Part shown: in pieces, positions 26,808 to 64,000 of the stretch
How positions within the stretch are numbered: position 1 is the stretch's first letter
Layout of the letters: the number at the start of each line of letters is the position of its first letter
From: Candidatus Omnitrophota bacterium
GTDB taxonomy: Bacteria > Ratteibacteria > UBA8468 > B48-G9 > JAFGKM01
Length of the DNA stretch: 64,000 nucleotides
Assembly (NCBI GenBank): GCA_023819375.1
Contig: JAMWDI010000003.1
Span: 197,634 to 261,633, forward strand
Direction of reading: 5' to 3'
Translations under genes and position numbers: made by a program
Notes under the pieces: generated by a model
What the model was told of the DNA's origin: nothing
The model's database searches: none
What the model saw: the letters and a program-made list of their open reading frames with translations, nothing else

Positions 26808-28031
26808 TAACAAAAAGGAGGTATAGATATGGCTAAGGAGAAATTTATAAGGACCAAGCCTCATGTGAATGTAGGTACGATAGGTCATGTAGATCATGGT
26901 AAGACGACGTTAACCAGTGCGATAACTTTAGTATTAGAGAAAGCGAACAAAGCCAAGTTTATGAAGTATGAGGAGATAGACAAAGCGCCGGAGGAGAGGG
27001 AGCGTGGGTTAACGATAAACATAGCGCATATAGAGTATGAGACGGAGAAGAGGCATTATGCGCACATAGATTGTCCTGGGCATGCTGATTATATAAAGAA
27101 CATGATAACGGGTGCAGCGCAGATGGATGGAGCGATATTAGTAGTTAGTGCGCCTGATGGTCCTATGCCTCAGACACGAGAGCACATATTATTAGCCAGG
27201 CAAGTAGATGTTCCTTATATGGTAGTATTTATGAACAAGATGGACATGGTAGAGGATTCAGAGCTTGTTGAGTTAGTTGAGTTAGAGGTGAGGGAGTTAT
27301 TAAGCAAGTATGGATTTCCTGGGGATGAGATTCCCATAATAAAGGGTAGTGCATTAAAGGTATTAGAGTGTGGATGTGGAAAGAGGGAGTGTCAGTGGTG
27401 TGGTAGGATATGGGAGTTAATGGATGCGATAGATAATTACATACCTGAGCCAGTTAGGATAATAGACAAGCCATTTTTACTTGCTGTAGAGGATGTATTC
27501 AGTATAACAGGGAGAGGGACTGTAGCGACAGGCAGGATAGAGAGGGGTAGAGTGAAGGTAGGAGATGAGGTAGAGATAGTTGGTTTAAGTCATGAGATAA
27601 AGAAGAGTGTAGTTACTGGGCTTGAGATGTTTAGGAAGGAGTTAGATGAAGGTGTAGCAGGGGACAATGTAGGTATTTTATTAAGAGGGATAGAGAAGGA
27701 TGAGGTAGAAAGGGGTATGGTTGTAGCTGCGCCTGGTAGTATAACACCGCATACACATTTTAAAGCGCAGGTATATGTATTAAAGAAAGAGGAAGGAGGT
27801 AGGCACACTCCGTTTTTCAGTGGGTATAGGCCACAGTTTTATATAAGGACCACTGATGTGACAGGAGAGATAAAGTTGCCAGAAGGGGTTGAGATGGTTA
27901 TGCCTGGTGATAATCTTGAAATGGAAGTGAAATTAATATATCCTGTTGCGCTTGAGAAAGGACAGAGATTTGCTATAAGAGAAGGAGGAAAAACAGTAGG
28001 TGCAGGTGCTGTAACTGAAATAATTGAGTAA
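26808..28031 (+). repeat. 1,224-bp direct repeat, copy 1 (RBS plus whole tuf gene)
   Basis: Bases 26808-28031 match 41759-42982. I saw no difference on reading both copies. Identity begins 21 bases before the ATG, including the AAAAAGGAGG ribosome site, and stops exactly at the stop codon; flanks differ on both sides. The pattern is that of gene conversion between tuf copies. Confidence 0.9.
26829..28031 (+). CDS. tuf: Elongation factor Tu, copy 1
   Basis: 400 residues. EF-Tu brings aminoacyl-tRNA to the ribosome. Motifs: [10 protein letters not shown] (P loop), [12 protein letters not shown], and domain 2/3 signatures much like Thermus EF-Tu. Residues 181-191 hold a Cys-rich insertion, C181-x-C183-x4-C188-x2-C191, where most bacterial EF-Tus have an acidic or basic loop; it could bind zinc. 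Codon use differs from the neighbours: GAG, AAG, GCG, ACG and AGG dominate until about base 27,900, after which GAA and AAA return. A very strong AAAAAGGAGG site precedes it. It sits between tRNA-Thr and rpmG. Confidence 0.98.
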
Positions 28032-28044
28032 TAAGGTAAAAAAA

Positions 28045-28194
28045 ATGAGAGAAATAGTTTCTCTTGTGTGTTCAGAGTGTAAAAATAAAAATTATTATAC
28101 AACAAAAAACAAAAAGGTAAAAAAGGAGAAATTGCAGTTAAATAAATATTGTCCATCTTGTAAAAAACATACTTTACACGTAGAAGGAAAATAA
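28045..28194 (+). CDS. rpmG: Ribosomal protein L33, zinc form
   Basis: 49 residues. Large-subunit protein L33 with two CxxC pairs (CSEC and CPSC), the zinc-binding form. It starts 13 bases after the tuf stop with AAGG upstream and is followed by the tRNA-Trp promoter. Order tuf-rpmG-tRNA-Trp-secE-nusG is widely conserved, which supports this short gene. Confidence 0.93.
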
Positions 28195-28207
28195 AATTTT
28201 TAAAATA

Positions 28208-28236
28208 TTGACATTGAAAAATAAAAAAAGTATAAT
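28208..28236 (+). promoter_or_regulatory. Consensus promoter for tRNA-Trp, secE, nusG, rplKAJL and rpoBC
   Basis: A perfect TTGACA (28208-28213) and a perfect TATAAT (28231-28236) are separated by 17 bp. It is the best promoter in the window. tRNA-Trp starts 28 bases after the -10 box. Confidence 0.85.
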
Positions 28237-28263
28237 ATTTTTTTGTCAGATAGTTATCAAAAT

Positions 28264-28337
28264 AGGCCTGTAGCTCTAATTGGAAGAGCGGCGGACTCCA
28301 AATCCGTAGGTTGGAGGTTCGAGTCCTCCCAGGCCTG
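28264..28337 (+). tRNA. tRNA-Trp(CCA)
   Basis: Cloverleaf with acceptor stem AGGCCTG/CAGGCCT, anticodon loop CTCCAAA (anticodon CCA), T loop TTCGAGT and discriminator G as in bacterial tRNA-Trp. CCA tail not encoded. It lies just before secE, its usual position. Confidence 0.96.
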
Positions 28338-28353
28338 TTTGACAGAAATTTTA

Positions 28354-28539
28354 ATGAGAGATAAAATAAAAAATTATTTAAATGAAGTAAGAGGAGAATT
28401 AAAAAAAGTAACCTGGCCAGAAAAAAGAATTTTGAGAAATTCAACAATTATTATTGTTGTTTTTATGATTATAATGGGAATTTATTTTGGAATTGTTGAT
28501 GTTATTTTTGCAAAATTAATAAGTTTAATAATAAGGTAA
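28354..28539 (+). CDS. secE: Protein translocase subunit SecE
   Basis: 61 residues. SecE clamps SecY in the inner-membrane protein channel. It has the amphipathic family motif YLNEVRGELKKVTWPEKRI followed by a single hydrophobic segment (about residues 31-52). The frame runs upstream into tRNA-Trp, so the ATG at 28354 is the real start. nusG begins six bases after it. Confidence 0.95.
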   Translation: MRDKIKNYLNEVRGELKKVTWPEKRILRNSTIIIVVFMIIMGIYFGIVDVIFAKLISLIIR

Positions 28540-28544
28540 AAAAA

Positions 28545-29078
28545 ATGGGCAGATGGTATATTTTACACGTAAGAACTGGGCAAGAGGAAAAAATAAAAAA
28601 ATTGCTTGAAAATAGAGTTAACGAAGATACACAGAAGATAAAACAGATTATTATTCCTACTGAAAAAATTCTTGAAGTAGAAAAAGGTGAGAAGAAATCC
28701 AAAAATAAAAGATTTTGGCCAGGATATATATTGATAGAAATTGAGGATGAATTTGATAATGAAATTGTATGGCACAAAATAAGAACTACACCAGGTGTTT
28801 TTGGATTTCTTGGGGCAGGTGAAACCCCAGTTCCACTTAAAGAAGAGCAGGTATCTGCAATTTTAAAGGAAATAGAAGAAAGAAAGAGTAAACCAGCACC
28901 AAAGGTTGAATTTAAAGTAAATGATAGAATTGAAATAATAGATGGACCATTTGTTGGTTATACAGGTATTGTAGAAGAAGTTTATCCTGATAAGGAAAGA
29001 ATTAAAGTTAGTGTCTCAATTTTTGGAAGATCTACCTCTCTTGAATTAAATTACTGGCAGGTAGAGAGGATTACTTAA
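28545..29078 (+). CDS. nusG: Transcription termination/antitermination factor NusG
   Basis: 177 residues. NusG binds RNA polymerase and couples it to Rho or the ribosome. The N-terminal NGN domain ([42 protein letters not shown]) and the C-terminal KOW domain ([22 protein letters not shown]) are both complete. In order after secE, before rplK. Confidence 0.97.
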
Positions 29079-29091
29079 AGGAGTTAATAAT

Positions 29092-29520
29092 ATGGCAGAA
29101 AAAAAAGTTAAAGCAGTTGTAAAATTACAAATTCCTGGTGGACAGGCAACCCCTGCTCCTCCAGTTGGGCCTGCACTTGGGCAGCATGGAGTGAACATTA
29201 TGGAATTCTGTAAACAGTTTAATAATGTTACAAAAGGTAAAGAAGGAACAACAATTCCAGTAGTAGTGACTATCTATGAAGATAGAAGTTTTACATTTAT
29301 TACTAAAACTCCTCCAACCTCTGAATTAATAAAAAAAGCAGCAAAGATTGTAAAAGGTTCATCTGCACCTAACAGAGAAAAAGTTGCTAAAATAACGAGA
29401 AAACAGTTAGAGGAAATAGCAAAAATTAAACTACCGGATTTAAATACAAAGGATTTACAAAAAGCAATTAAAATAATAGAGGGGTCATGTAAAAGTATGG
29501 GAGTAGAAGTTGTCGATTAA
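29092..29520 (+). CDS. rplK: Ribosomal protein L11
   Basis: 142 residues. L11 forms the GTPase-associated centre with 23S rRNA. The N-terminal [19 protein letters not shown] and C-terminal [22 protein letters not shown] motifs are intact. GGAG precedes the ATG; it is 13 bases after nusG and 11 before rplA. Confidence 0.97.
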
Positions 29521-29531
29521 AAGGAGAGTAT

Positions 29532-30239
29532 ATGTCAAAAAGATATAATGCATTACTTGAAAAAGTTGATAGAACAAAACTTTATACTTTAGATGAAGCA
29601 ATTACGGTTTTAAAAGACTTACATTCTGCAAAATTTGATGAAACAGTAAATCTTTCAATAAAACTAGGGATTGATCCTAAAAAACTACAACAACCAGTTA
29701 GAGGAACAGTTGTTTTACCACATGGAACTGGGAGAAATGTGAGAGTTCTTGTTTTTGCTAGTGGAGAAAATGTAAAAAAAGCACAGGAAGCAGGTGCAGA
29801 TTATGTTGGTGGTAGTGAACTTGTTGAGAAAATAAAAAATGGATGGCTTGATTTTGATTATGTAATTGCAACTCCTGATATGATGAAAATTGTTGCACCA
29901 TTAGGAAAAATATTAGGACCACGCGGTCTTATGCCAAATCCTAAAACTGGAACTGTGACTGAAAATGTAGATATAGTTGTAAAAGAAGCAAAAAGAGGAA
30001 AAGTTGATTTTAAAATGGATAAAGATGGCAATATACATATGGGAGTTGGAAAAATTTCTTTTCCTGAAAAGGCATTGAAAGAAAATATCCTTTCTGCTCT
30101 TTCTGCAGTTTTAAGTGTGAAACCACAAGGTGTAAAAGGAACATATATAAAAACAATTCATTTGTCACTTACAATGTCCCCATCTGTAAAACTTAATGTC
30201 CAAAAAGTCATTCAAGAATTGAAAGGGAGTATTGTATGA
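29532..30239 (+). CDS. rplA: Ribosomal protein L1
   Basis: 235 residues, full length. L1 forms the mobile stalk at the E site. The GRNVRVLVFA, LGPRGLMPNPKTGTV and GKISFPEKALKEN blocks are typical. Its stop overlaps the rplJ start in ATGA, so rplJ is translationally coupled to it. Confidence 0.97.
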   Translation: MSKRYNALLEKVDRTKLYTLDEAITVLKDLHSAKFDETVNLSIKLGIDPKKLQQPVRGTVVLPHGTGRNVRVLVFASGENVKKAQEAGADYVGGSELVEKIKNGWLDFDYVIATPDMMKIVAPLGKILGPRGLMPNPKTGTVTENVDIVVKEAKRGKVDFKMDKDGNIHMGVGKISFPEKALKENILSALSAVLSVKPQGVKGTYIKTIHLSLTMSPSVKLNVQKVIQELKGSIV

Positions 30240-30757
30240 AGAAATGGACAAAGAAAAGAAAAAGAGAAGTTGTTGAAATGTTGACAAAAGAGATAAAAAA
30301 TAGTAAAATAAGTATTTTAGGTAATTTTTCTGGTCTAAATGTAGCAGAGATGGAAAAAATAAGGGATGCAGTTAAGCAAAATGGTGGGAATATAATGGTT
30401 TTGAAAAATAACTTGCTTGAAATTATTTTCAAAAATTTAAGTAAAGATGAGAGTATATCTAAATTTATAAGTGGTCCTACTTTTATTGTCTGGAGCAAAG
30501 AAGAAAAAGAAATTGAAATAATAAAGTCATTACTCAATTTTCAGAAAGACACAGGAAAAATTGAAATTAAAGGGGGTTTGTTGTATAATGAAATAGTTGA
30601 TAAAGCAAAAATAGAAGAAATAAGTAAATTGCCAGGTAAAAAAGAACTGGAAGCAAAAGTAATTTATTTACTAAAAAGCCCTTCTGTAAGGTTAATTTAT
30701 TCACTTAAAAGTCCAATTTTAAGAGTTATAAACGTTTTAAAAAATTTAAACAAATAA
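30236..30757 (+). CDS. rplJ: Ribosomal protein L10
   Basis: 173 residues. L10 anchors the L7/L12 stalk: [25 protein letters not shown] at the rRNA-binding end and C-terminal helices for L12 binding. It overlaps rplA by 4 bases, so there is no room for the separate L10(L12)4-binding leader used for autoregulation in E. coli. Confidence 0.95.
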
Positions 30758-30770
30758 GAAAGGAGTAAAA

Positions 30771-31230: not shown

Positions 31231-34200
31231 ATGGAAAGGAAGGATGTTTTTGTAGAAATTCCTGACCTTTTATATATTCAAAAGAAATCTTATGAAGAAT
31301 TTTTACAGAAAGATGTTCCTCCTGAAAAAAGAAAGATAAAAGGTTTAGAGGAAGTTTTTAGGAAGGTATTCCCTATAGAAAGTGATGATAACCTTTTGAA
31401 ATTAGAGTATGTTTCTTATTCTCTTGATGATCCAGCACATACGATTAAAGAGTGTGTAGAAGAAAAACTTACTTATGAGGCAAAACTTAAAGTTAAATTT
31501 AGACTTCATATAAATAGAAAAACAGAGGATGGGAAAATTGAAAATGTTCGTATAAAAGAGCAGGATGTATATGTTGGTGGAATACCTTTGATGACAGAAA
31601 ATGGTAGTTTCATTATAAATGGAGTTGAAAGGGTTGTTGTAAACCAACTTTTAAGATGTCCAGGGGTTTATTTTAAAGAAGAAGAGGAAATAATTGGTCA
31701 GAAAACATTATATTCAGCAAAGGTTTATCCATCAAGAGGTATTTGGATTGAGATATATATAGACCATCATGAAACACTTTGGGTTCTAATAGGTAAAAAG
31801 AAAATTCTCTTAACTACATTTTTGAAAGCACTTGATGCTGAAGAAGAAACAATAAAAGAAGTTTATGGTGACATTAACAATATGCCTGAAAATTCACCAT
31901 TAAGAATAACACAGTTGAAAGATTCAACAAAAGATAGAGAGGATGCATTAAAATATATTTATACAGAATTGAGGCCTGGGTATTCTCCAATTTTAAGAGA
32001 GGCAGAAAAATTTTTTAAATCATTATTTTTCACTGATGAAATATATGACCTTTCTGAAGCAGGAAGATCTCAGATTAACAGAAAACTTGGACTCAATCTT
32101 AAAGAAAGACATCTTACAAAACTTGATATTATTAAAATAGTGAAATATCTCCTTTCACTTTATGAAAAAAAGGAAGGTGAAGTTGATGATATTGACCATC
32201 TTAAAAATAAAAGAGTAAGGACTTCAGCAGAAATTATTAGAGAACATGTATATGAGGGTTTAACCAGATTAGCAAGATATTGTAAAGAAAAAATGGCACT
32301 TGTTGATAAAACGAAGATAGAGGATGTCACGCCTCAGGAATTAATAAATTATAGAATTTTTGCTAATGTTGTAAATGATTTCTTTGCAAGAAATCAACTT
32401 TCTCAATTTTTAGACAAAACAAATCCACTTGCAGAGATAACACATAAGAGAAGAGTTACTGCAGTTGGAGAAGGTGGAGTTAAGGAAAGAAAAAGAGCAG
32501 GCTTTGAAGTAAGAGATGTTCATTATACTCATTTCGGGAAAATATGCCCAATTGAAACACCTGAAGGTGCAAATATTGGATTGATAAATTCACTTACAGT
32601 ATATGCAAAAGTTGATGAATTAGGATTTTTGAGATCTCCCTATTATAAAGTTGAAAATGGTTATGTTAAAACTGATGAAGTAGTTTATTTAAGTGCAGAT
32701 GAAGAAGAAGAATACAACATAGCACCTTCAGATGTTCCATATGATGAAAAGACAAAAAGAATAATTCCTGAAAAGGTAATGGTAAGAAGTAAAGGAGGAG
32801 ATTTTATAGAAGTAAAAAGAGAAGAAATCCATTATATTGGAGTTTCTCCAATTCAGACTGTTGGAGTAAGTGCTTCTTTAATTCCATTTCTTGAACATGA
32901 TGATTCAAACAGGGCTTTAATGGGTTCTAACATGCAAAGGCAAGCAGTTCCACTTATTAGACCTGAAAGTCCAATAGTTAAAACTGGTATGGAAAAATAT
33001 GTTGTTAGAGATGCAGGAGTTGTAATAAGAGCGAAAAATCCAGGAGTAGTTGAATATGTTGATGCAGAGAAAATAATCATTAAAAGAGATAATCCTGGAA
33101 TATTCCCATGGGAAGAAAAAGATATCTATTATTTGAAAAAATTTGTTAAAACAAATCAGGATACCTGTTTCCATCAGAGACCACTTGTAAATGTTGGAGA
33201 TAGAGTTGAAGAGGGGCAGATTTTGACAGATGGACCTGCTGTTTCAAGAGATGGAGAACTTTCACTTGGTAGAAATTTACTTGTTGCTTTTATGCCGTGG
33301 CATGGATACAATTATGAGGATGCAATTTTGATAAGTGAAAGGTTGGTTAAAGATGATGTTTTCACTTCAATACATATAAAAGAATTTGAAGTTGAGGCTA
33401 GGGACACAGAACTTGGTCCAGAAGAGATTACAGCAGATATTCCTAATGTTCCAGAGGAACAACTTGCAAATTTAGATGAAGAGGGAATAGTGAAAATAGG
33501 TACAGAAGTAGAACCAGATGATATACTTGTTGGAAAAATTACACCGAGAGGAGAAGCAGAACTTACACCAGAAGAAAAACTTTTAAGAGTAATTTTTGGT
33601 GAAAAATCAAAAAATGTATTGAATACATCTGAAAAAGTTCCTCCGGGGATAAAAGGTGTAGTCATAAATGTAAGGAAATATAAGAGAAGAGAAGACATGT
33701 CTGAAGAGGAAATCAAAAAAGAGATTGAAAAAGTTCAGAAAAACTTTAAAAACAAGGAAAAGATTGTTAGAGAAATCATAACTGCAGAGATAAAAAAACT
33801 TCTTGAAGTTTACAAAATCAATCTTAAAGTTACTTCAACTGTAAGTGGATGGAAAAAGTTAATAAATAAAGTTCCAGATGAAGTAAGGGAAAAACTATTG
33901 AAAATAATTGAAATTGGAGAAAAAGAAATTGAAAAGATTGAAACCCAACTTCAAGAAGAAGAGGCAAAAATAAAGAAAGGAGTTGAATTAGAACCAGATG
34001 TAAGAATGAAAGTAGTTGTTGAGGTTGCAATAAAGAAGAAGATAGCAGTTGGAGATAAGATGAGCGGAAGACATGGAAATAAAGGTGTTATTGCAAAAAT
34101 TTTACCTGAAGAAGATATGCCTTTCCTTGAAGATGGAACTCCTGTTGATATTGTTTTAAATCCTCTTGGAGTACCTTCAAGAATGAATGTTGGACAGATA

Positions 34201-37200
34201 TTAGAAACTCATCTTGGGTGGGCTTTAAAGACATTGGGATACAGTTTGGAAGTCCCTGTTTTTAAGGGTTTAAAAGAATTAGAAATAAAACATCTCTTGA
34301 AGTCTGCAGGATTACCTGAAAGTGGAAAAACAATACTTTATGATGGACAAACTGGAGAACCTTTTGCACAACCAGTTACTGTTGGTTATATGTATATGAT
34401 GAAGTTAATACACCTTGCAGATGAAAAAATTCATGCAAGATGTACAGGTTCATATTCTCTAATTACACAACAGCCTCTTGGTGGAAGAGCACAATTTGGA
34501 GGCCAGAGATTTGGAGAAATGGAAGTTTGGGCTCTTGAAGGTTATGGTGCTGCTTATACCTTAAGAGAAATGTTAACTGTTAAAAGTGATGATACTGAAG
34601 GAAGAAAATTGATGTATGATGCAATTGCAAAAGGGCTTGATTATAAAGGAGAAAATATTCCAGAATCCTTTAAGGTTTTAAAGAAAGAACTTCAAGGCCT
34701 TGGTTTTGATTTGAAAGAAACAGAAAAGATATTTGAGGATGGAAAGAAAAGACCTGTTGTAAGTATAAGAATTGCTACTCCAACAACTATTCGTTCCTGG
34801 TCTTACGGAGAGGTAAAGAAAGCAGAAACATTAAATTATAGAACTTTAAGGCCTGAAAGAGATGGCCTTTTCTGTGAAAAGATTTTTGGGCCTGAAAGAG
34901 ATTATGAATGTGCTTGTGGAAAATATAAAAAATTGAGATATAAAGGAATTATTTGTGATAGATGTGGAGTAGAAGTGACAACAAGAAAAGTAAGAAGAGA
35001 AAGAATGGGACATATAGAACTTGCTACTCCTGTTTCTTATGTTTGGTTATTTAAGAGCACTTCTAACTGGCTTGGACTTCTTCTTGATCTTTCTCAGGCA
35101 GAACTTGAAATGGTTATTTATTATGAGAGATATATAGTTGTTGATCCTGGCAATGTGCCTGAATTGAAAGAAAAAATGTTACTTACTGAAAAAGAATATC
35201 AGGAATATAAAGAAAAATATGGAAATAAGTTTAAGGCTGGGATTGGTGCAGAAGGTCTTCAGGAATTACTTAAAAAGATAGATCTTGTAAAACTTGAAGA
35301 GGAAATTAAAGAAGAATTGAAGAAAAAGAAAAATTATGAAAAAAGAAGTGAACTTATTAAAAAATTGAGAATGGTACAGGGATTAATAAAGACACAGGTG
35401 AAGCCAGAATATCTTGTAACCAATATTATTCCTGTAATTCCACCAGATTTAAGACCACTTTTACCACTTGATGGTGGAAGATTCGTTGCTTCTGACTTGA
35501 ATGACCTTTATCAGAGGGTAATTAATAGAAATAACCGTCTTAAGAAACTTATTAAATTACAGACACCAGATATTATTGTAAGAAATGAAAAAAGACTGCT
35601 TCAAGAAGCAGTTGACGCATTAATGGATAATGGAAGACATGGAATGCCAGTTTTGGGTAAAGGGAAAAGACCGTTGAAATCTCTTGCTGATGCTTTGAGA
35701 GGTAAACAAGGAAGGTTTAGACAAAATCTTCTCGGTAAACGTGTTGATTACTCTGGTAGGGCCGTAATTGTCGTCGGTCCTGAGCTGAAATTAAATGAAT
35801 GTGGAATACCAAAAGAAATGGCTTTGGAACTTTTCAGTCCATTTGTTTTAAGAGAATTTAGAAAGAAAGAATATTTCCATACTCCTGGAAGCGCAAAAAG
35901 AGCAATAAGGGAAAATAGACCTGAAGTTTGGGAAGTTCTTGAAAAAGTTATTAAAAACCATCCAGTCCTTTTAAATAGACAACCAACTTTACATAGATTA
36001 AGTATTCAGGCATTTGAGCCAAAGTTAATTGAGGGAAATGTAATAGCAATTCATCCACTTGTTTGTCCTGCTTATAATGCTGATTTTGATGGAGATACTA
36101 TGAGCATTCATGTTCCTCTAACACCAGAAGCAATACTTGAAGCAGAACTTCTAATGAAAGCGACAACTCATATACTTTCTCCAGCAAATGGTAAACCCGT
36201 TGTTACACCTACAAGAGATATAGTGATGGGTTGTGCTTATCTGACATATATGAGTGAAGAAGCAGAATATCCTAAGGTTATTTCAAGTTTTGATGAGGCA
36301 AAATATTTGAACTATATAGGTGAAATTGAATTGCATAGACCAATTAAAGTTAAAAATGAGTATGGAAGAATTATAACAACAACTGTTGGTAGAATAATCT
36401 TTAATGAGATTATACCTCCAGAAATTCCATTTAAAAATGAAGTGTTTGAATCTTCAGGACTTGAAAAACTTATAGATGAAATATTTACAAAATGTGGATA
36501 TGAAAAAACAGTAGAGTTTTTAGATGCTTGTAAAGAACTTGGATTTTACTATTCAACAATAAGTGGAGTAACAATTGGAATAGATGATCTTATAGTTCCT
36601 GAAATAAAATGGGAATTGATAAAGGAGGCGAAAGAAGAAGTTGAGAAAATAGAAAAGATTTATAAAAAAGGGATAATTTCAGAAGGTGAAAAATATAATA
36701 GAAAAATTGATATATGGACATCTGTAACAAATGAATTGATGGAACAGGTTATGAATACAATTAAAAATGATACAGGAATAAGTCCATTTAGAATTAATCC
36801 AATCTTCTTAATGGTTTCATCAGGAGCAAGAGGTAACAAAACCCAAGTTGCACAATTGATGGGAATGAGAGGATTAATGATAAGACCAACAAAGAAACTT
36901 ACAGGTGGTATAGGAGAAATTATAGAAACTCCTGTTATATCTAATTTCAAAGAAGGACTTTCTGTTCTTGAATATTTCATTTCAGTTCATGGGGGCAGAA
37001 AGGGACTTGTTGACACTGCATTAAAAACTTCTGACGCAGGATATTTAAGCAGACGTCTTGTAGATGTTGCTCATTCTGTAATTGTTAGAGAAGAAGATTG
37101 TGGAACATTAGAAGGTATATATGCAAGTCCTTTAATTGAAGGTGATGAAGAAATAATTTCATTGAAGGAAAGAATCGTTGGAAGAGTTGCTTTTGATGAT

Positions 37201-38766
37201 ATTACAACAATACTTGGAGAAGTTATTGTTAAAGAAGGCGAAGTTATAGATGAAGAAAAGGCTGATAGAATAATAAAAGCAAAAGAAGAGGGTCTTTTAC
37301 TTACTGATAAAATAAAAATTAGATCAGTTTTGACATGTAAAACTGAAAAGGGAGTGTGTGCGAAATGTTATGGATGGGATTTATCAAGAAAGAAACTTGT
37401 TAATATTGGAGAGGCAGTAGGTGTTATAGCAGCACAATCTATTGGTGAACCTGGAACACAATTAACTTTGAGAACTTTCCATACAGGTGGAGCAGCATCA
37501 AGAGGTGTTGGTCCATCATCTATAAGAAGTAAATCAGAAGGAATAATTAAATATTGTGAGGATTTAAAAGTTGTTAAAAATAGGGATGGTAAAAATGTTG
37601 TATGTCAAAGAGAAGGAAGTATTGTTATAGTTGATGAAAAAGATAGGGAACTTGAGAGATATACTTTAAGAGTTGGTTCCATAATTAATGTAGAAAACAA
37701 TAGTAAAGTCAAAAAAGGACAAATAATTGCTGAATGGGATCCTTATTCTATCCCTGTAATTGTTGATAAAGGTGGAATAATTAAGTTTAAAGATGTAGAA
37801 ATAGGAAAAACAGCAAAAGAAGAAAGGGATTCTCAAACACAAATAGAGAGGCTGGTTATTATTCCACATAAAGAAGAAAAGGAACCTCAGATTATTCTTG
37901 TAGATGAAAAAGGAGAAAAAGTTGGTATTTATCACTTACCAATAGGAGCACATATAATTGTAAAGGAAGGAGACAAGGTTTTACCTGGAGACATTGTCGC
38001 AAAAACACCAAGAACAGTAAGAAGGGTTCAAGATATAACAGGAGGACTTCCAAGGGTTTCAGATTTGTTTGAAGCAAGGACTCCTAAAAATCCAGCAATA
38101 TTAACAGAAATAGATGGATATGTAAAAATTGAGACAGAAAAAGGAGGTAGAAAAGTTAAAGTTTATAATCCAGAGACTAAGACGGAAAAAGAGTATTTAA
38201 TTCCTTATGGTAAAACACTTGTTGTGAGTGATGGTGATTATGTTTTGGCAGGGACAGAATTGACAGATGGATTTAAAGTTTTATCAGATATTTTAAGAAT
38301 CCAGGGAGAAAAGAAAGTTATGGAATATCTTTTGAATGAAATACAGAAAGTTTATAGAGTTGAAGGTGTAAAGATAAATGATAAACATATTGAAATAATA
38401 ATCAGACAAATGTTATCAAAAGTCAGAGTTGAAGACCCAGGAGATACATTTTTACTTGAAGGAGAAGAAAAGAACCGTTATGAAATTGAAAAAATAAATG
38501 AATCTTTACCAAAGGGTAAAAAACCTGCAACTTATAAACCTCTTGTTTTGGGTATTACACGTGTTGCTTTGAGTAGTGATAGTTTCATTTCTGCTGCCTC
38601 TTTCCAAGAAACCATGAAAGTTCTTACAGATGCAGCAGTTTTAGGGAAAGAAGATACGCTTGAGGGTTTGAAAGAAAATGTAATACTTGGTAGACTAATA
38701 CCAGCAGGAACAGGGATTATTGAAAAGAAAGAGGAAGCAGTTGAAGAAAAAATTTATGCAAAATAG
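31231..38766 (+). CDS. rpoBC: Fused RNA polymerase beta and beta-prime subunit (RpoBC)
   Basis: 2,511 residues in one uninterrupted frame. Beta spans about 1-1165, ending ESFKVLKKELQGLGFD. After about 12 linker residues, beta-prime begins near 1178 (SIRIATPTTIRSWSYGEV). No in-frame ATG or GTG with an SD lies at the junction, so the chain is a true fusion. Beta-prime has its zinc finger (CACGKY, CDRCG), the catalytic NADFDGD with D1618, D1620 and D1622 (followed by T instead of the usual Q), and the second zinc site (CKTEKGVCAKC). In the rifampicin region of beta, THKRRVTAVG has Thr 410 at the E. coli S531 position, and TPEGAN has Ala 447 for the usual Pro. Fusions are known in Helicobacter and Wolbachia. 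Confidence 0.97.
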   Translation: MERKDVFVEIPDLLYIQKKSYEEFLQKDVPPEKRKIKGLEEVFRKVFPIESDDNLLKLEYVSYSLDDPAHTIKECVEEKLTYEAKLKVKFRLHINRKTEDGKIENVRIKEQDVYVGGIPLMTENGSFIINGVERVVVNQLLRCPGVYFKEEEEIIGQKTLYSAKVYPSRGIWIEIYIDHHETLWVLIGKKKILLTTFLKALDAEEETIKEVYGDINNMPENSPLRITQLKDSTKDREDALKYIYTELRPGYSPILREAEKFFKSLFFTDEIYDLSEAGRSQINRKLGLNLKERHLTKLDIIKIVKYLLSLYEKKEGEVDDIDHLKNKRVRTSAEIIREHVYEGLTRLARYCKEKMALVDKTKIEDVTPQELINYRIFANVVNDFFARNQLSQFLDKTNPLAEITHKRRVTAVGEGGVKERKRAGFEVRDVHYTHFGKICPIETPEGANIGLINSLTVYAKVDELGFLRSPYYKVENGYVKTDEVVYLSADEEEEYNIAPSDVPYDEKTKRIIPEKVMVRSKGGDFIEVKREEIHYIGVSPIQTVGVSASLIPFLEHDDSNRALMGSNMQRQAVPLIRPESPIVKTGMEKYVVRDAGVVIRAKNPGVVEYVDAEKIIIKRDNPGIFPWEEKDIYYLKKFVKTNQDTCFHQRPLVNVGDRVEEGQILTDGPAVSRDGELSLGRNLLVAFMPWHGYNYEDAILISERLVKDDVFTSIHIKEFEVEARDTELGPEEITADIPNVPEEQLANLDEEGIVKIGTEVEPDDILVGKITPRGEAELTPEEKLLRVIFGEKSKNVLNTSEKVPPGIKGVVINVRKYKRREDMSEEEIKKEIEKVQKNFKNKEKIVREIITAEIKKLLEVYKINLKVTSTVSGWKKLINKVPDEVREKLLKIIEIGEKEIEKIETQLQEEEAKIKKGVELEPDVRMKVVVEVAIKKKIAVGDKMSGRHGNKGVIAKILPEEDMPFLEDGTPVDIVLNPLGVPSRMNVGQILETHLGWALKTLGYSLEVPVFKGLKELEIKHLLKSAGLPESGKTILYDGQTGEPFAQPVTVGYMYMMKLIHLADEKIHARCTGSYSLITQQPLGGRAQFGGQRFGEMEVWALEGYGAAYTLREMLTVKSDDTEGRKLMYDAIAKGLDYKGENIPESFKVLKKELQGLGFDLKETEKIFEDGKKRPVVSIRIATPTTIRSWSYGEVKKAETLNYRTLRPERDGLFCEKIFGPERDYECACGKYKKLRYKGIICDRCGVEVTTRKVRRERMGHIELATPVSYVWLFKSTSNWLGLLLDLSQAELEMVIYYERYIVVDPGNVPELKEKMLLTEKEYQEYKEKYGNKFKAGIGAEGLQELLKKIDLVKLEEEIKEELKKKKNYEKRSELIKKLRMVQGLIKTQVKPEYLVTNIIPVIPPDLRPLLPLDGGRFVASDLNDLYQRVINRNNRLKKLIKLQTPDIIVRNEKRLLQEAVDALMDNGRHGMPVLGKGKRPLKSLADALRGKQGRFRQNLLGKRVDYSGRAVIVVGPELKLNECGIPKEMALELFSPFVLREFRKKEYFHTPGSAKRAIRENRPEVWEVLEKVIKNHPVLLNRQPTLHRLSIQAFEPKLIEGNVIAIHPLVCPAYNADFDGDTMSIHVPLTPEAILEAELLMKATTHILSPANGKPVVTPTRDIVMGCAYLTYMSEEAEYPKVISSFDEAKYLNYIGEIELHRPIKVKNEYGRIITTTVGRIIFNEIIPPEIPFKNEVFESSGLEKLIDEIFTKCGYEKTVEFLDACKELGFYYSTISGVTIGIDDLIVPEIKWELIKEAKEEVEKIEKIYKKGIISEGEKYNRKIDIWTSVTNELMEQVMNTIKNDTGISPFRINPIFLMVSSGARGNKTQVAQLMGMRGLMIRPTKKLTGGIGEIIETPVISNFKEGLSVLEYFISVHGGRKGLVDTALKTSDAGYLSRRLVDVAHSVIVREEDCGTLEGIYASPLIEGDEEIISLKERIVGRVAFDDITTILGEVIVKEGEVIDEEKADRIIKAKEEGLLLTDKIKIRSVLTCKTEKGVCAKCYGWDLSRKKLVNIGEAVGVIAAQSIGEPGTQLTLRTFHTGGAASRGVGPSSIRSKSEGIIKYCEDLKVVKNRDGKNVVCQREGSIVIVDEKDRELERYTLRVGSIINVENNSKVKKGQIIAEWDPYSIPVIVDKGGIIKFKDVEIGKTAKEERDSQTQIERLVIIPHKEEKEPQIILVDEKGEKVGIYHLPIGAHIIVKEGDKVLPGDIVAKTPRTVRRVQDITGGLPRVSDLFEARTPKNPAILTEIDGYVKIETEKGGRKVKVYNPETKTEKEYLIPYGKTLVVSDGDYVLAGTELTDGFKVLSDILRIQGEKKVMEYLLNEIQKVYRVEGVKINDKHIEIIIRQMLSKVRVEDPGDTFLLEGEEKNRYEIEKINESLPKGKKPATYKPLVLGITRVALSSDSFISAASFQETMKVLTDAAVLGKEDTLEGLKENVILGRLIPAGTGIIEKKEEAVEEKIYAK

Positions 38767-41758: not shown

Positions 41759-42982
41759 TAACAAAAAGGAGGTATAGATATGGCTAAGGAGAAATTTATA
41801 AGGACCAAGCCTCATGTGAATGTAGGTACGATAGGTCATGTAGATCATGGTAAGACGACGTTAACCAGTGCGATAACTTTAGTATTAGAGAAAGCGAACA
41901 AAGCCAAGTTTATGAAGTATGAGGAGATAGACAAAGCGCCGGAGGAGAGGGAGCGTGGGTTAACGATAAACATAGCGCATATAGAGTATGAGACGGAGAA
42001 GAGGCATTATGCGCACATAGATTGTCCTGGGCATGCTGATTATATAAAGAACATGATAACGGGTGCAGCGCAGATGGATGGAGCGATATTAGTAGTTAGT
42101 GCGCCTGATGGTCCTATGCCTCAGACACGAGAGCACATATTATTAGCCAGGCAAGTAGATGTTCCTTATATGGTAGTATTTATGAACAAGATGGACATGG
42201 TAGAGGATTCAGAGCTTGTTGAGTTAGTTGAGTTAGAGGTGAGGGAGTTATTAAGCAAGTATGGATTTCCTGGGGATGAGATTCCCATAATAAAGGGTAG
42301 TGCATTAAAGGTATTAGAGTGTGGATGTGGAAAGAGGGAGTGTCAGTGGTGTGGTAGGATATGGGAGTTAATGGATGCGATAGATAATTACATACCTGAG
42401 CCAGTTAGGATAATAGACAAGCCATTTTTACTTGCTGTAGAGGATGTATTCAGTATAACAGGGAGAGGGACTGTAGCGACAGGCAGGATAGAGAGGGGTA
42501 GAGTGAAGGTAGGAGATGAGGTAGAGATAGTTGGTTTAAGTCATGAGATAAAGAAGAGTGTAGTTACTGGGCTTGAGATGTTTAGGAAGGAGTTAGATGA
42601 AGGTGTAGCAGGGGACAATGTAGGTATTTTATTAAGAGGGATAGAGAAGGATGAGGTAGAAAGGGGTATGGTTGTAGCTGCGCCTGGTAGTATAACACCG
42701 CATACACATTTTAAAGCGCAGGTATATGTATTAAAGAAAGAGGAAGGAGGTAGGCACACTCCGTTTTTCAGTGGGTATAGGCCACAGTTTTATATAAGGA
42801 CCACTGATGTGACAGGAGAGATAAAGTTGCCAGAAGGGGTTGAGATGGTTATGCCTGGTGATAATCTTGAAATGGAAGTGAAATTAATATATCCTGTTGC
42901 GCTTGAGAAAGGACAGAGATTTGCTATAAGAGAAGGAGGAAAAACAGTAGGTGCAGGTGCTGTAACTGAAATAATTGAGTAA
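41759..42982 (+). repeat. 1,224-bp direct repeat, copy 2 (RBS plus whole tuf gene)
   Basis: Second copy of the repeat at 26808-28031, about 15 kb away in the same orientation. It begins 7 bases after the fusA stop and ends exactly at the tuf stop codon; the next two bases lead into the S10 promoter. Recombination between the copies could delete or duplicate the rpoBC segment. Confidence 0.9.
41780..42982 (+). CDS. tuf: Elongation factor Tu, copy 2
   Basis: 400 residues, identical to the copy at 26829-28031, including the Cys-rich insertion at 181-191 and the unusual codon style. This is the str-operon position (after fusA, before rpsJ), so it is probably the ancestral site; the copy near tRNA-Thr corresponds to tufB. 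The identical nucleotide sequence points to recent conversion. Confidence 0.98.
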
Positions 42983-59537: not shown

Positions 59538-60479
59538 ATGTTGTGGGGTTATTTAATTCATCTCGGTTATAATATGTGGGAAGATCATGGGCCAGAACAT
59601 AGAGTTCATCCAGATGAAAAAATAGATTATCTTCCAAGAACAAAATTAAGATGCAAAGAGGACGTTTGGGACTATATTGTTGAGAAATTACCAGAATATG
59701 GAGTAAATTTACTTGTTATAGATTTAGGAGAGGGGCTTAAATATGAAAGTCATCCTGAACTTGCTATTGAAGGTTCTTGGAGTGTTGAAAAATTTAAAAA
59801 TAAATTAAAAAGAATTAGAGATTTAGGCATAGAACCAGTTCCAAAACTAAATTTTTCAACTGCACATGATGTTTGGCTTGGAAAATATTCAAGAATGGTT
59901 TCAACTGATATTTATTATAAAGTATGCAGTGATTTAATAAGTGAAGTTATTGATATATTTGACAAACCTAAATTTTTTCATCTTGGAATGGATGAAGAAA
60001 CATATGAACACCAGAAAGGACTTTTATATGCTGTGGTAAGACATGGAGATTTATGGTGGAATGATCTTTATTTTTTAATAAATGAAGTTAAAAAGAAGAA
60101 AGTAAGGCCTTGGGTTTGGAGTGATTACCTGTGGAGACATGAAAATGAATTTGTTGAGAAAATGCCTAAAGATGTTATTCAAAGCAATTGGTATTATGGA
60201 TTAGATTTTGATCTGAATAACGAAAAAATTAGTGTATATTTAAATGCCTATTTAAAACTTGATAAGTATGGATATAAACAAATACCAACAGGAAGTAATC
60301 ATGCACATTTTGAAAATTTTGAAAAGACAGTTGAATTTTGTAAGAAAAATATATCCTCAGAAAATTTACTTGGCTTTTTACAGACAGTATGGCGTCCAAC
60401 TGTTAAGGAATGGCTTGAAAACCATATTAAAGCACTTGAAGGTGTTAAAAGAGGCAAAGAGCTTTGGATGAAGATATAG
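59538..60479 (+). CDS. GH20-like TIM-barrel glycosidase-type protein
   Basis: 313 residues, no signal peptide visible. Barrel features include VNLLVIDLGEGLKYESHPELA at the N-terminus, PVPKLNFSTAHDVWLG, and FFHLGMDEE with D152-E153, comparable to the HxGGDE catalytic Asp-Glu of GH20 beta-hexosaminidases; later WVWSDYLWR and IQSNWYYG resemble barrel strands. It is shorter than true GH20 enzymes and lacks their N-terminal domain. AAAGGAG precedes the ATG. Its end overlaps the convergent AraC gene by 35 bases. Hexosaminidase activity is inference. Confidence 0.6.
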   Translation: MLWGYLIHLGYNMWEDHGPEHRVHPDEKIDYLPRTKLRCKEDVWDYIVEKLPEYGVNLLVIDLGEGLKYESHPELAIEGSWSVEKFKNKLKRIRDLGIEPVPKLNFSTAHDVWLGKYSRMVSTDIYYKVCSDLISEVIDIFDKPKFFHLGMDEETYEHQKGLLYAVVRHGDLWWNDLYFLINEVKKKKVRPWVWSDYLWRHENEFVEKMPKDVIQSNWYYGLDFDLNNEKISVYLNAYLKLDKYGYKQIPTGSNHAHFENFEKTVEFCKKNISSENLLGFLQTVWRPTVKEWLENHIKALEGVKRGKELWMKI

Positions 60480-61251
60480 GTTTTAATTTTTTTCTATATT
60501 TTCCAGGTGTGATTTTATAATACTCCTTAAATTTTTTTGTAAAATAATATACATTTTTAAATCCACATAAGCGAGCAATTTCCTTAATGGATAAGTTTTG
60601 ATTTTTTAAAAATTCATTTGCCTTTTTCATTCTTATTTTATTCAAATAATCAAAAATATTTTGTCCAGTTAAATTTTTATACCTCCGGCAGAGATATTGA
60701 GGATTTAGATTAACAAATTGTCCTATAAAAGAAAGGGTTATTTTTTTATCATAGTTTGTCTCAAGTAATTCATTAATATGGTTGATTTTGTCCCTTTGAT
60801 AATTATTAAGATTTTTCAAAATTTCAGTTAAAGTTTTCAAAAAGAGAATCAAAAATTTTTCTACTTTATTTCTTCTCTCAAGTATGTAATAACCAAGGAT
60901 ATTTTTGAAACAAAATTTTATTTTTTCGCTTTCTTTCACATTTTGTAAAAGTATCTTTAGTGCAATTTTAGGTAATAGAAATTTTTTAACTTCATTTTCA
61001 TCAAAAACTATTTTCATACTGTAATTATTCATAAAAACTCTATTATCAAAATCTTTTTCTGCTTTATGTCGTTTATATGGAGGTATTATAAATAAACAAT
61101 TTTTTTCAATTCTTTCCCAATGATCATCAAGTAAATACCTTCCTTTCCCTTTAAGATAAAAATCAATTTGCCATATATCAGAGTGATAATGAAGATCAAA
61201 TCCTGTCCAGTTTTCCCCTCTTATTTCTGCAACATGGACTAATTTCATCAT
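60445..61251 (-). CDS. AraC-family transcription regulator
   Basis: 268 residues on the minus strand. The N-terminal part is cupin-like (DLHYHSDIWQIDFYLKGKGRYLL, FIIPPYKRHKAEKD), usual for sugar sensing. The C-terminal part is the AraC double helix-turn-helix (LSFIGQFVNLNPQYLCRRYKNLTGQ and SIKEIARLCGFKNVYYFTKKFKEYYKITPGKYRKK). Two adjacent ATGs (61251 and 61248) lie just after a TATAAT box, so the mRNA may be leaderless. It probably controls nearby secreted or glycosidase genes; targets are not shown. Confidence 0.9.
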   Translation of the reverse strand: MMKLVHVAEIRGENWTGFDLHYHSDIWQIDFYLKGKGRYLLDDHWERIEKNCLFIIPPYKRHKAEKDFDNRVFMNNYSMKIVFDENEVKKFLLPKIALKILLQNVKESEKIKFCFKNILGYYILERRNKVEKFLILFLKTLTEILKNLNNYQRDKINHINELLETNYDKKITLSFIGQFVNLNPQYLCRRYKNLTGQNIFDYLNKIRMKKANEFLKNQNLSIKEIARLCGFKNVYYFTKKFKEYYKITPGKYRKKLKPISSSKALCLF

Positions 61252-61255
61252 TTAA

Positions 61256-61283
61256 ATTATAAAATAGAATTTTAAAAAGTCAA
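61256..61283 (-). promoter_or_regulatory. Promoter abutting the AraC gene start (leaderless candidate)
   Basis: On the minus strand TTGACT (61283-61278) and TATAAT (61261-61256) are 16 bp apart. The -10 box ends 4 bases before the first ATG and 7 bases before the second, so the normal start distance falls on the start codons. No SD is present. Confidence 0.6.
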
Positions 61284-61302
61284 TATTTTATAAAAATTTT
61301 AA

Positions 61303-61330
61303 TTGAAAAAATTAACTTTTGTACTAAAAT
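61303..61330 (+). promoter_or_regulatory. Promoter for the secreted protein gene at 61354
   Basis: TTGAAA at 61303-61308 and TAAAAT at 61325-61330 are 16 bp apart, pointing right in the 102-base divergent gap. The predicted leader is about 17 bases and has no clear SD. Confidence 0.4.
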
Positions 61331-61353
61331 TTTTAAAGTAAAAAATAAGAAAA

Positions 61354-62667
61354 ATGATACAAAATTTTAAAATATTTAAAATTGAAATTTCAGCAATTCT
61401 CTTTTTCGTGAATTTTTTCTCTTTTTCCGATGTAAACTTTAAAATAGAGATAGATCAAAATTTGTTTAAAATTAAAAATTATGTAAAAAACCCCTCTTTT
61501 GAAGAAGATTATGGATGGTCTGTATATTCAAATGAATACGTAGATGGAAAGTCCCAAGCAGCAAAAATATCTGAAGGAACAGGGAGAACAGAGAAAGAAA
61601 AATATTCTGGAAATTATAGTTTTAAAATTACCGGAAAAAGAAACTTTAATACTGGAATATATCAAAGAATTGATTTTGAACCGCCAATAAATAAGGGTAA
61701 ATATCTATATTTAAGTTATAGAATAAAAACAAAAGGAACGATTCACGAAGGTGGTAATATAGGAATTTCTATAAAAGCATTTTTTACAGATGGGACGAAC
61801 ATTTATATCCCTGGATTATCAATACCAAAAGGCATTTATAATTTTGAAGAGTTGAAGTTTAAATATGAAATTCCCAAGGATATAAAGAATATCATACTTT
61901 ACTGCATATATTATAATCAAGAAGGGGAAATTTATTATGACGATATATTTTTGACGATTGTAGATAAGATTAAAACAAAATTTGAAGTAAGTGGAAAAAA
62001 CTTGAAAAGAATAAGGATTTACAGCGGAACCGATTTAATAAAAGATACTGAAAACATAAAGAAAGGAGTAAATCATTATGAAGATGAAATTGAAATATTG
62101 CCTCTTGTAGATTATCTTTTTGAAATAGAAGACTATGAAGGAAAAATTTACAGGAAAACCTATCCAGAAAAAAAAGTTCTTATAAAAGAAGGAGAAATGA
62201 ATTTGACAATGGGAGAGGAAAGAATAGATGTTAATGAAGAAAAAATTTACTATTTTAATGTAAAAAAGAAAGAGGATAAGAAATATATTATTGAACTTAA
62301 ATGTAGATTAGAAACACTCTCTAAAAATGCAGGTATTGGTGGACACAATCCTGCTCTTGTCATTTTTATTAATGAAGAGAGATTGAAATTTGATAGAGTG
62401 ATTAATAGGAAAGATAAATTTACAATGGCAGATGGAAGAATATGTTCAACTGGTAATGATGTCTTTACAGTTTATTACTCATCCCATTTTATCTTTCCTC
62501 CAGAAGACAATCCATATTTTCCAGTAGATATTCCAGAGAATGACCCATATACATATAAATTTGACATAACAGACATTTTAAAAGATGGAGAAAATAAAGT
62601 GAAGATTCAAAATAAATCACAATTGAGAGCATTAATAATAAAGGATTTAAAAGTAATAGAGAAATAA
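61354..62667 (+). CDS. Secreted protein with CBM4/9-like jelly-roll domain
   Basis: 437 residues with an N-terminal hydrophobic signal region (about residues 11-26). Residues about 42-205 resemble a CBM4/9-type jelly roll (KNPSFEEDYGWSV, SGNYSFKITGKRNF, YYNQEGEIYYDDIFLTI). The C-terminal half is beta-rich with a closing FDITDILKDGENKVKI strand pair as in galactose-binding folds; no catalytic motif is seen. It may bind glycans alongside the following gene, which starts 12 bases downstream after AGGAGAG. Confidence 0.65.
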   Translation: MIQNFKIFKIEISAILFFVNFFSFSDVNFKIEIDQNLFKIKNYVKNPSFEEDYGWSVYSNEYVDGKSQAAKISEGTGRTEKEKYSGNYSFKITGKRNFNTGIYQRIDFEPPINKGKYLYLSYRIKTKGTIHEGGNIGISIKAFFTDGTNIYIPGLSIPKGIYNFEELKFKYEIPKDIKNIILYCIYYNQEGEIYYDDIFLTIVDKIKTKFEVSGKNLKRIRIYSGTDLIKDTENIKKGVNHYEDEIEILPLVDYLFEIEDYEGKIYRKTYPEKKVLIKEGEMNLTMGEERIDVNEEKIYYFNVKKKEDKKYIIELKCRLETLSKNAGIGGHNPALVIFINEERLKFDRVINRKDKFTMADGRICSTGNDVFTVYYSSHFIFPPEDNPYFPVDIPENDPYTYKFDITDILKDGENKVKIQNKSQLRALIIKDLKVIEK

Positions 62668-62679
62668 AAAAGGAGAGAT

Positions 62680-64000
62680 ATGAAAAGAATGATAATGTTT
62701 TTGATTTTAATAAGCGGTTTTATATTTTCACAGGATTTAGTTTATATAGAGCCGAAAGAAGTAAAGCAGATTGACTATAAAGTAGAGATAAAGGAGACAG
62801 GAGCGATAAGAGTTGAATTAAAAGGGAGCCAATACATAATAACAAGTGAGTTTTCAATACCAGAAGGGATATGGGCGAGATTAGACAAAGACAGGATAGA
62901 GAACTTAAAGAATGTAAAGATAGAGAAGGATAAGATAAAGGGAGAGACAGAATATTATGAGATAGAAAGGAGCATCAAGAGACATAAAGAGTGCATAGAG
63001 GTGATAGATAAGATAAAGAATAAGAAAGATGAGTTAATACCTGTAATGATAAGACATAAAGTAGAGATACCAGATGCAAAAGAGCATTATTTAGGTGGAT
63101 TAAGGATATATTTAAAGAGGGGTGTATCAAATGAGCCAGCGAATCCAACGACGATAGTAATAACAGAGACGGGTTCAATAGGGCTTTTACCATTAAGTGA
63201 TGTATTTAGGGTTCATGTTCAGAATTTTGTATCAGGGAGTATATATGGTATAGGAGATAATGAATTAGTAATAAGGCCGAATACAGAATATACAGCAAGA
63301 TGGGCGATATTTGTAAGAGAAGATAAAGGTTATTTTTCAATTATTAATGCTATAAGAAGATTTTTTGATACAAATTTTACTATTCCTGGGAGTTTTTGTT
63401 TTTTTACTTCAAGGACAAAGGCATATCATGAAAAGGATAAAGAAACTCTTATGGCCAGATTTAATACTTCTATTCTTGCTACTTCAGATATGTCAGAAGA
63501 AGAAATGAGAAAATATTTCACAAATAAAAATGCATACTTTATAACTTTTCCTTTTAATAGAACAGCAAGTGGAATAGATACTCAAAATAAATCACTTTAT
63601 TTTCAACAGACAAATATAGATTTTGTAAAATCAATAATTGAAAGAATAAAAAAAGCATATCCTAATGGAAAAATATTGCCATATTTTCATAGTTTCATAG
63701 ATACAACATCCAATGCAAAAGAGAAATATAAAGATGCAATAACACTTTTACCAGATGGAACACAGGCAGATTATGGAGAGCCAATATATCCTATATTTTT
63801 CCCAACACTTGAAAATTCATTTGGAAAAACATTAGAAAAACTTATAGACATATTACTTGATGTTTATGGAGCAGATGGAATATACTGGGATGAATTTGAA
63901 TATTCAAGGGTTAAATATCATTATGGTCAACCTCACGATGGATATAGTGCGGATATAGATCCAAAGACATTTAAGATAACAAGGTTAAAGAGTTCAGTTA
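62680..64000 (+). CDS. Secreted protein of unknown family, 3' end beyond the window
   Basis: An open frame of 440 codons runs off the right edge. It starts MKRMIMFLILISGFIFSQD, a signal peptide, after AGGAGAG. Residues about 20-215 are charged and beta-rich with a possible sugar-processing N-domain; later parts read like a TIM barrel (ITFPFNRTAS, ILPYFHSFIDT) with an acidic DGIYWDEFEYS motif near residue 400 that could be catalytic. Family not recognised. Codon use in about 62750-63310 is rich in GAG, AAG, GCG and ACG like the tuf genes, then changes to the local GAA/AAA style. Confidence 0.6.
   Translation, partial: MKRMIMFLILISGFIFSQDLVYIEPKEVKQIDYKVEIKETGAIRVELKGSQYIITSEFSIPEGIWARLDKDRIENLKNVKIEKDKIKGETEYYEIERSIKRHKECIEVIDKIKNKKDELIPVMIRHKVEIPDAKEHYLGGLRIYLKRGVSNEPANPTTIVITETGSIGLLPLSDVFRVHVQNFVSGSIYGIGDNELVIRPNTEYTARWAIFVREDKGYFSIINAIRRFFDTNFTIPGSFCFFTSRTKAYHEKDKETLMARFNTSILATSDMSEEEMRKYFTNKNAYFITFPFNRTASGIDTQNKSLYFQQTNIDFVKSIIERIKKAYPNGKILPYFHSFIDTTSNAKEKYKDAITLLPDGTQADYGEPIYPIFFPTLENSFGKTLEKLIDILLDVYGADGIYWDEFEYSRVKYHYGQPHDGYSADIDPKTFKITRLKSSV

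What the first reader, a model, noticed from the sequence alone, without database searches (positions are those of the whole stretch)
26829..63310. Distinct codon style shared by tuf and the first half of the last gene
In tuf up to about 27,900, and again in about 62750-63310, Glu, Lys, Ala, Thr and Arg codons favour G-ending forms (GAG, AAG, GCG, ACG, AGG) while ATA, TTA and GTA stay A-ending. All other genes favour GAA and AAA. Both style changes occur inside reading frames. For tuf, high expression could explain it, but not in a truncated secreted protein gene. A common cause may be that both are multi-copy sequences shaped by biased gene conversion.
Basis: partly seen in the sequence, partly recalled or inferred. 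Interest (0 to 1): 0.6.

Follow-up and report, generated by a model that had tools for sequence, protein, structure and literature searches.

The report
Codon signature of gene-converted repeats
In this bacterium and its relatives, DNA stretches kept identical in two places of the genome use a distinctive set of synonymous codons that stops near the edges of the shared stretch, which suggests that copying between duplicates leaves a recognisable and non-standard mark.

Summary
The window contains a second, identical tuf (41780-42982) with the same style. The last gene's styled part (about 62740-63279) lies inside a 651-bp tract (62678-63328) that is 100% identical to a second locus at the start of contig C2. 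A codon model trained only on tuf genes of other genomes was run over all 1,539 ORFs. It found five families clearly above background: tuf, this gene, a gene with 159-bp internal direct repeats, a decayed transposase with two copies, and one single-copy gene. Four of the five are exact repeats (Fisher p = 5e-12). The same scan of about 600 kb of a genome from another family found only tuf and a GH123-like gene, whose style starts 8 codons after the point where it becomes identical to its neighbour paralog. The signature is not GC bias: G rises over A, C does not rise over T, ATA/GTA/TTA rise, and the A/G choice depends on the next base. Expression, tRNA supply and foreign origin do not explain it. 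Long-term biased gene conversion of an unusual, strand-asymmetric kind fits best, but the molecular source of the bias is unknown. Many exact repeats lack the style, so duplication alone is not sufficient.

The parts
26829..28031 (+). tuf copy 1 (EF-Tu, 400 aa), upstream of tRNA-Trp, nusG, rplKAJL and fused rpoBC
26832..27893 (+). style domain of tuf copy 1 (score 211 with a model trained on other genomes' tuf); the last ~45 codons return to background style
26808..26828 (+). 21 nt before the ATG (ribosome-binding region) also identical between the two tuf copies; identity ends at the stop codon
41759..41779 (+). 21 nt before the ATG of tuf copy 2, identical to copy 1
62680..63999 (+). last gene (440 aa, signal peptide-like start, no Pfam, NCBIfam or PDB match); runs off the end of contig C8; second copy at C2:2-1300 (-)
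62678..63328 (+). exact identity tract (651 bp) with the copy on contig C2
62740..63279 (+). style domain of the last gene, inside the identity tract (20-codon bins; best-scoring segment 62746-63279)
63399..63715 (+). approximate stretch where the two copies are clearly diverged (the first differences begin at 63329 and 63370); background codon style
63716..63830 (+). second identical patch (approximate edges), background style; read as a recent conversion tract
63874..64000 (+). copies identical again up to the contig end (approximate start); style reappears in 63940-64000 (LLR +8.1), consistent with a further repeat beyond the contig

Best explanation
Shown: a small set of sequences present as exact copies (tuf, this gene's 5' half, internal repeats of a coiled-coil gene, a decayed rve-type transposase; in a second genome tuf and a GH123-like gene) shares one synonymous signature, which starts and stops near the edges of the shared sequence. 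Inferred: these sequences have long been homogenised by gene conversion, and the conversion is biased. When copies differ at a synonymous site, the version with G rather than A on the coding strand tends to win. The preference is strongest before A or C and absent after T, where A wins over T or G. Over many conversions this pushes third positions to an equilibrium that single-copy genes never reach. The coding-strand asymmetry, and the fall of the signature toward the 3' end of tuf, suggest that the biased step is tied to transcription (a strand-specific lesion, nick or mismatch-correction step). That last step is speculative.
For: Two identical tufs, and a 651-bp exact tract in the last gene, with style ending inside or at the tracts. 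An unbiased scan with a model trained on other genomes' tuf gave only five families above 16, four of them exact repeats (p = 5e-12 by ORF). In the C3 gene the two 159-bp units score 0.64 and 0.67, the spacer 0.46, the flanks 0.18 and 0.17. In G025, a different family, the only non-tuf hit starts at about codon 457, and its neighbour paralog becomes identical at codon 449 and runs off the contig there. The single-copy homologs of the last gene (C7 and genome G001) have ordinary style. The two-copy tufs of the order keep the style although about 129/400 third positions differ between G000 and G015, so the force is active rather than a relic. Where the copies have drifted 2.9% apart (G020) the style is weaker, 0.54. 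G006's tuf is vertical (90% aa) but ordinary beyond codon 40, and only one copy was found. The next-base rule is shared by unrelated repeats (.85/.82/.49/.51 before A/C/G/T in tuf.70/.70/.38/.48 in the other repeats; background flat at .13-.17).
Against: 24 of 31 ORFs with at least 40 codons in exact repeats lack the style, notably the C7 regulator pair with 303 such codons; these have to be called recent. One styled gene (C11:34205-36352) is single copy in the assembly. Two identical tufs occur without the style in other lineages, for example G048 (L196). Ser TCY to AGY and ATT to ATA shifts are hard to derive from a simple mismatch bias. No conversion event was observed directly. Copy number in G006 is not settled, because the region after fusA is missing from its assembly.
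Confidence: 0.6

Rival explanations
1. Translational selection: the style is the optimal codon set of highly expressed genes, and tuf shows it because EF-Tu is abundant.
For: tuf is normally among the most expressed genes (general knowledge). The style is kept across the order. The A/G choice depends on the next codon's first base, which can be a translational context effect.
Against: Ribosomal proteins and fusA show background usage (GAG 0.16, ATA 0.45 and 0.36). The same style sits in a decayed transposase and in parts of secreted or GH-like genes, and it starts and stops inside reading frames at repeat edges. The tRNA set has CNN anticodons for Val and Leu (CAC, CAA) as well as Glu, Lys, Ala, Thr and Arg, so it does not predict GTA/TTA next to GAG/AAG. 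G006's tuf, presumably as highly expressed, lacks it.
Confidence: 0.12
2. Selection made more effective: the codons are weakly preferred everywhere, and concerted evolution spreads preferred codons in duplicates faster than in single-copy genes.
For: Fits the multi-copy restriction and the codon-phase character (residual preferences across codon boundaries differ from those within codons). The idea that conversion spreads optimised codons appears in PMC6053082.
Against: Single-copy abundant genes show no trace of the same preference. Two-copy conversion should raise selection efficacy only modestly, yet GAG goes from 15% to 82%. A broken transposase should not be under such selection.
Confidence: 0.13
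3. Chi-like or lesion-initiated drive: one copy is protected (or spared breaks) by G-rich coding-strand motifs, so conversion replaces the other copy; the style is an accumulation of such motifs. This is a sub-model of the best explanation.
For: Explains the restriction to repeats, the strand asymmetry (AG, GA and GG enriched while CT and TC are depleted) and the 5'-to-3' decline along tuf.
Against: Once codon usage is fixed, no word of 4-6 bases stands out strongly (z at most about 5), so no discrete Chi motif is visible.
Confidence: 0.2
4. Foreign origin: styled segments came from a donor whose whole genome has this style.
For: Transposases and secreted-protein genes are often transferred; related transposases in other species carry the style too.
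Against: tuf sits at the same two syntenic sites throughout the order, amino-acid identities group by family, and the style survives heavy synonymous turnover. No sampled member of the order has it as its genomic norm.
Confidence: 0.05

Closest known systems
GC-biased gene conversion in bacteria (Lassalle et al. 2015, PMC4450053)
   Same: Recombining sequences shift at synonymous sites in a way that tRNA-optimal codons do not explain; the effect is strongest at third positions.
   Different: Here only A to G on the coding strand shifts, C does not rise over T, ATA/GTA/TTA increase, and the effect depends on neighbouring bases. It concerns duplicates within one genome, and the size (GAG 15% to 82%) is far larger.
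Concerted evolution of duplicate tuf genes (PMC6053082: 29 orders; Salmonella model PMC5485169)
   Same: Two tuf copies at conserved, separate sites are kept identical, with identity ending near the ends of the gene.
   Different: Those sources concern similarity and tract length. In the passages read I found no codon signature tied to converted sequence; PMC6053082 only mentions spread of optimised codon usage as a possibility.
Repeat-induced point mutation (RIP) of fungi (from general knowledge)
   Same: A process that acts only on duplicated sequence and leaves a context-dependent signature with sharp edges.
   Different: RIP raises AT by C to T changes and destroys genes. Here G rises, proteins stay intact, and the copies stay identical rather than diverging.

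Membership tests
Concerted evolution of tuf duplicates | Two copies in one genome more alike than orthologs between species | tested here: met
   Copies identical in G000, G002, G003, G023; 1 difference in G025; 19/648 in G020; 163-169 differences between species of the family
Concerted evolution of tuf duplicates | Conserved distinct genomic contexts, excluding independent recent duplication | tested here: met
   tRNA-Thr/tuf1/tRNA-Trp/nusG and fusA/tuf2 order kept in G000, G002, G003, G023 and G025; partly visible in G012 and G020
GC-biased gene conversion | Composition shift confined to recombining or converted sequence | tested here: met
   7 of 8 styled ORFs hold exact repeats; style edges close to repeat edges; but 24 exact-repeat ORFs are unstyled
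GC-biased gene conversion | Both G- and C-ending codons rise (strand-symmetric) | tested here: not met
   NNR G 0.16 to 0.60 in pooled non-tuf domains; NNY C 0.13 to 0.13; fourfold C stays at or below 0.08 in tuf, transposase and last-gene domains
GC-biased gene conversion | AT-ending codons decline | tested here: not met
   ATA 0.42 to 0.90, GTA 0.28 to 0.59-0.69 in tuf and the last gene, TTA 0.43 to 0.60-0.86
GC-biased gene conversion | Mismatch repair machinery present | tested here: met
   MutL domain in 25/28 and MutS_I in 26/28 genomes of the order, including G000
Translational codon bias of highly expressed genes | Shared by ribosomal proteins and elongation factors | tested here: not met
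   rplKAJL and fusA at background
Translational codon bias of highly expressed genes | Preferred codons match the tRNA genes | tested here: not met
   46 tRNA genes found; CNN anticodons also present for Val and Leu, where A-ending codons are preferred
Repeat-induced point mutation | C to T changes in duplicated DNA, raising AT and inactivating genes | tested here: not met
   G rises and the tuf and last-gene reading frames are intact

The most novel reading that the evidence does not exclude
Several bacterial lineages (this order, and judging by tuf also Scalindua and some Aquificota and Nitrospirota bins) have a strand-asymmetric, neighbour-dependent conversion drive, linked to transcription or lesions. 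It rewrites synonymous sites of any sequence kept in two or more recombining copies, and its footprint can be read as a recorder of long-term gene conversion.
Probability: 0.35. Interest if true: 0.85.

Novelty: new variant of a known kind. Interest (0 to 1): 0.72.

Why it matters
Whether gene conversion biases base composition in bacteria is debated and is usually tested with weak genome-wide GC trends. Here the contrast is about five-fold, has sharp edges inside genes, and goes in a direction that standard GC bias and tRNA selection do not predict. If general, the signature would let one find converted or collapsed repeats from codon usage alone (it pointed to a repeat cut off by a contig end in G025). 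It would also mean that codon usage of duplicated genes cannot be taken as evidence of expression or foreign origin.

Tried and rejected
tRNA supply: the set is complete, so it does not explain GTA/TTA next to GAG/AAG. Expression: ribosomal proteins and fusA are at background. A Chi-like motif: no discrete word remains once codon usage is fixed. Strand-symmetric base rules: complementary dinucleotides behave oppositely (AG and GA up, CT and TC down). HGT of tuf: synteny and amino-acid identities are vertical. Loss of mismatch repair as the cause: MutS and MutL are present. High identity alone: the 90-97% identity bin shows no shift (0.163 against 0.144 in unique sequence). A named organism: the search of named genomes returned no member of the order, best match 80% aa. 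Literature searches gave no report of such a signature, within an open-access library only.
Full report
WHAT WAS CLAIMED AND WHAT IS THERE. Both are correct. In tuf (26829-28031) GAG is 36/44, AAG 20/29, GCG 13/17 and AGG 15/20. G3 is 0.33 against 0.07-0.21 in the other ORFs, while C3 stays at 0.05. The window holds a second tuf at 41780-42982, identical over all 1203 bases. Identity begins 21 nt before the ATG and stops at the stop codon. The last gene runs off the end of contig C8. A second copy lies at the start of contig C2 on the minus strand, 100% identical over the first 649 bases of the query. The exact run is window 62678-63328, 651 bp. Beyond it the pair is a mosaic of diverged and identical patches, as left by repeated gene conversion.

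GENOME-WIDE TEST. I read the 13 contigs of the genome as stretches and joined them. The share of G among A/G-ending codons is 0.146 +/- 0.052 per ORF; tuf tops the list at 0.69. To avoid circular choice I trained a codon model, with the next base as context, on tuf genes of nine other genomes of the order, and scanned all 1,539 ORFs for best segments. The 99.5th percentile is 19.8. Only five families exceed 16: tuf x2 (211), the last gene and its C2 copy (69.3, window 62746-63279), C3:318391-318828 (59.5), C11:35645-36070 (50.6), and a 1.7-kb two-copy transposon gene on C6 and C8 (29.4). A relative of the last has an rve integrase-core domain, and here its reading frame is broken. The C3 hit spans two 159-bp direct repeats inside one gene: the units have 0.64 and 0.67, the spacer 0.46, the flanks 0.18 and 0.17. 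Of 8 styled ORFs, 7 contain exact repeats of at least 40 codons, against 24 of 1,530 unstyled ORFs (Fisher p = 5e-12). These ORFs are not independent (pairs count twice), but by family it is still 4 of 5.

INDEPENDENT REPLICATE. The same scan gave tuf x2 (215), one other gene (138), then 17. The other gene is a 1,154-aa GH123_N-containing protein with ordinary style up to about codon 440 and the signature after that. Its neighbour paralog becomes identical to it at codon 449 and runs off the contig 126 nt later; the 150 nt before are 55% identical. The style step and the start of the repeat therefore coincide within about eight codons.

THE SIGNATURE. In the styled repeats of G000 other than tuf, twofold NNR codons go from 0.16 to 0.60 G, while twofold NNY codons stay at 0.13 C. 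ATA rises from 0.42 to about 0.9; TTA and GTA rise; TCT is 0 of 30 against 0.31 expected. The A/G choice depends on the base after the codon: G in 0.85, 0.82, 0.49 and 0.51 before A, C, G and T in ten tufs of the order, and in 0.70, 0.70, 0.38 and 0.48 in the non-tuf repeats of G000, against a flat 0.13-0.17 in the background. AG, GA and GG are enriched but CT and TC depleted, so the effect is tied to the coding strand. No 4-6-base word remains strongly enriched once codon usage is fixed.

PERSISTENCE AND NATURAL EXPERIMENTS. In nearly all sampled members of the order tuf has the style (0.51-0.88, neighbours 0.19-0.50), and where two copies are assembled they are identical or nearly so, although about 129 of 400 third positions differ between G000 and G015. 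The synteny of the two loci is conserved. In G020 the copies differ by 2.9% and the style is weaker (0.54). In G006 a vertically inherited tuf has ordinary style (0.22) except in its first 40 codons, and only one copy was found, but the region after fusA is missing from that assembly. Pooled tufs show 0.77 in the first 20 codons, up to 0.86 near codon 150, and 0.18 in the last 20. Single-copy homologs of the last gene are ordinary. Outside the order, tuf of Scalindua (two copies, 2 differences) and of bins labelled Aquificota, Zipacnadia and Nitrospirota shows a similar shift; those of Firmicutes, Sporomusa and an Atribacteria-labelled bin with two identical copies do not.

EXPLANATION. Shown: the signature marks a subset of exact repeats and steps near their edges, in two genomes. 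Inferred: long-lasting gene conversion with a bias for coding-strand G over A. It is not the classical GC bias, because C does not gain and A-ending codons of three amino acids do. Translational selection is unlikely: ribosomal proteins and fusA are at background, the tRNA set is complete and does not predict the pattern, and a broken transposase carries it. MutS and MutL are present, so mismatch-repair models remain open. Strand asymmetry and the 3' decline point to a transcription-linked step, which is speculation.

LIMITS. 24 of 31 exact-repeat ORFs lack the style, including a 303-codon pair on C7; I read these as recent duplicates but could not date them. C11's styled gene is single copy in the assembly. 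Other phyla have identical tufs without the style. The genomes are draft, so repeats may be collapsed and copy numbers are uncertain.

NOVELTY. Concerted evolution of tuf is known (PMC6053082, PMC5485169), and GC-biased conversion in bacteria has been proposed (PMC4450053). I found no report of a strand-asymmetric, context-dependent codon signature confined to converted repeats (open-access library only).

Noticed in passing
window 31231-38766: rpoB and rpoC are fused into one 2,511-aa reading frame (all Rpb2 then all Rpb1 domains in one protein); single long matches suggest the fusion is shared across the order.
   Followed up: partly
window 27366-27420 and 42317-42371 (approximate): EF-Tu carries a cysteine-rich insert ([17 protein letters not shown]) in the G domain, possibly a metal-binding knuckle.
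   Followed up: no
G000 contig C11:35645-36070 (-): A 142-codon style domain inside a 716-codon gene that is single copy in the assembly; its best paralogs are only 24-28% identical. Possibly a relic of a lost or unassembled second copy.
   Followed up: partly
G000 contig C7:473-1719 and 9730-10972: Two copies of a GntR/LacI-like regulator gene, 95% identical with 303 codons in exact repeats, without any style: the main counterexample.
   Followed up: partly
G000, for example C7:1603-2406, C9:226271-227086, C10:2-724: A family of some 40 prepilin-like genes shares a near-identical 5' segment (GFTLIELLVVVAIIAILAAMLLPALS); several contigs end in these segments, and their repeated part is slightly richer in G-ending codons than the rest.
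   Followed up: partly
G000 contigs C3:115000-122500 and C8:57300-60800: Two large CRISPR-like repeat arrays, one next to cas-like genes.
   Followed up: no
L208 (Candidatus Scalindua sediminis), L197, L201, L207: tuf of other phyla with the same kind of shift (G share 0.70-0.91 against 0.31-0.62 in flanks, ATA up); in Scalindua two copies differ at 2 sites.
   Followed up: partly
G000 contig C6:131-1836 and C8:149130-150848: A two-copy decayed insertion sequence (rve-type relatives in G003, G007, G016 and G026, which also show the style).
   Followed up: partly
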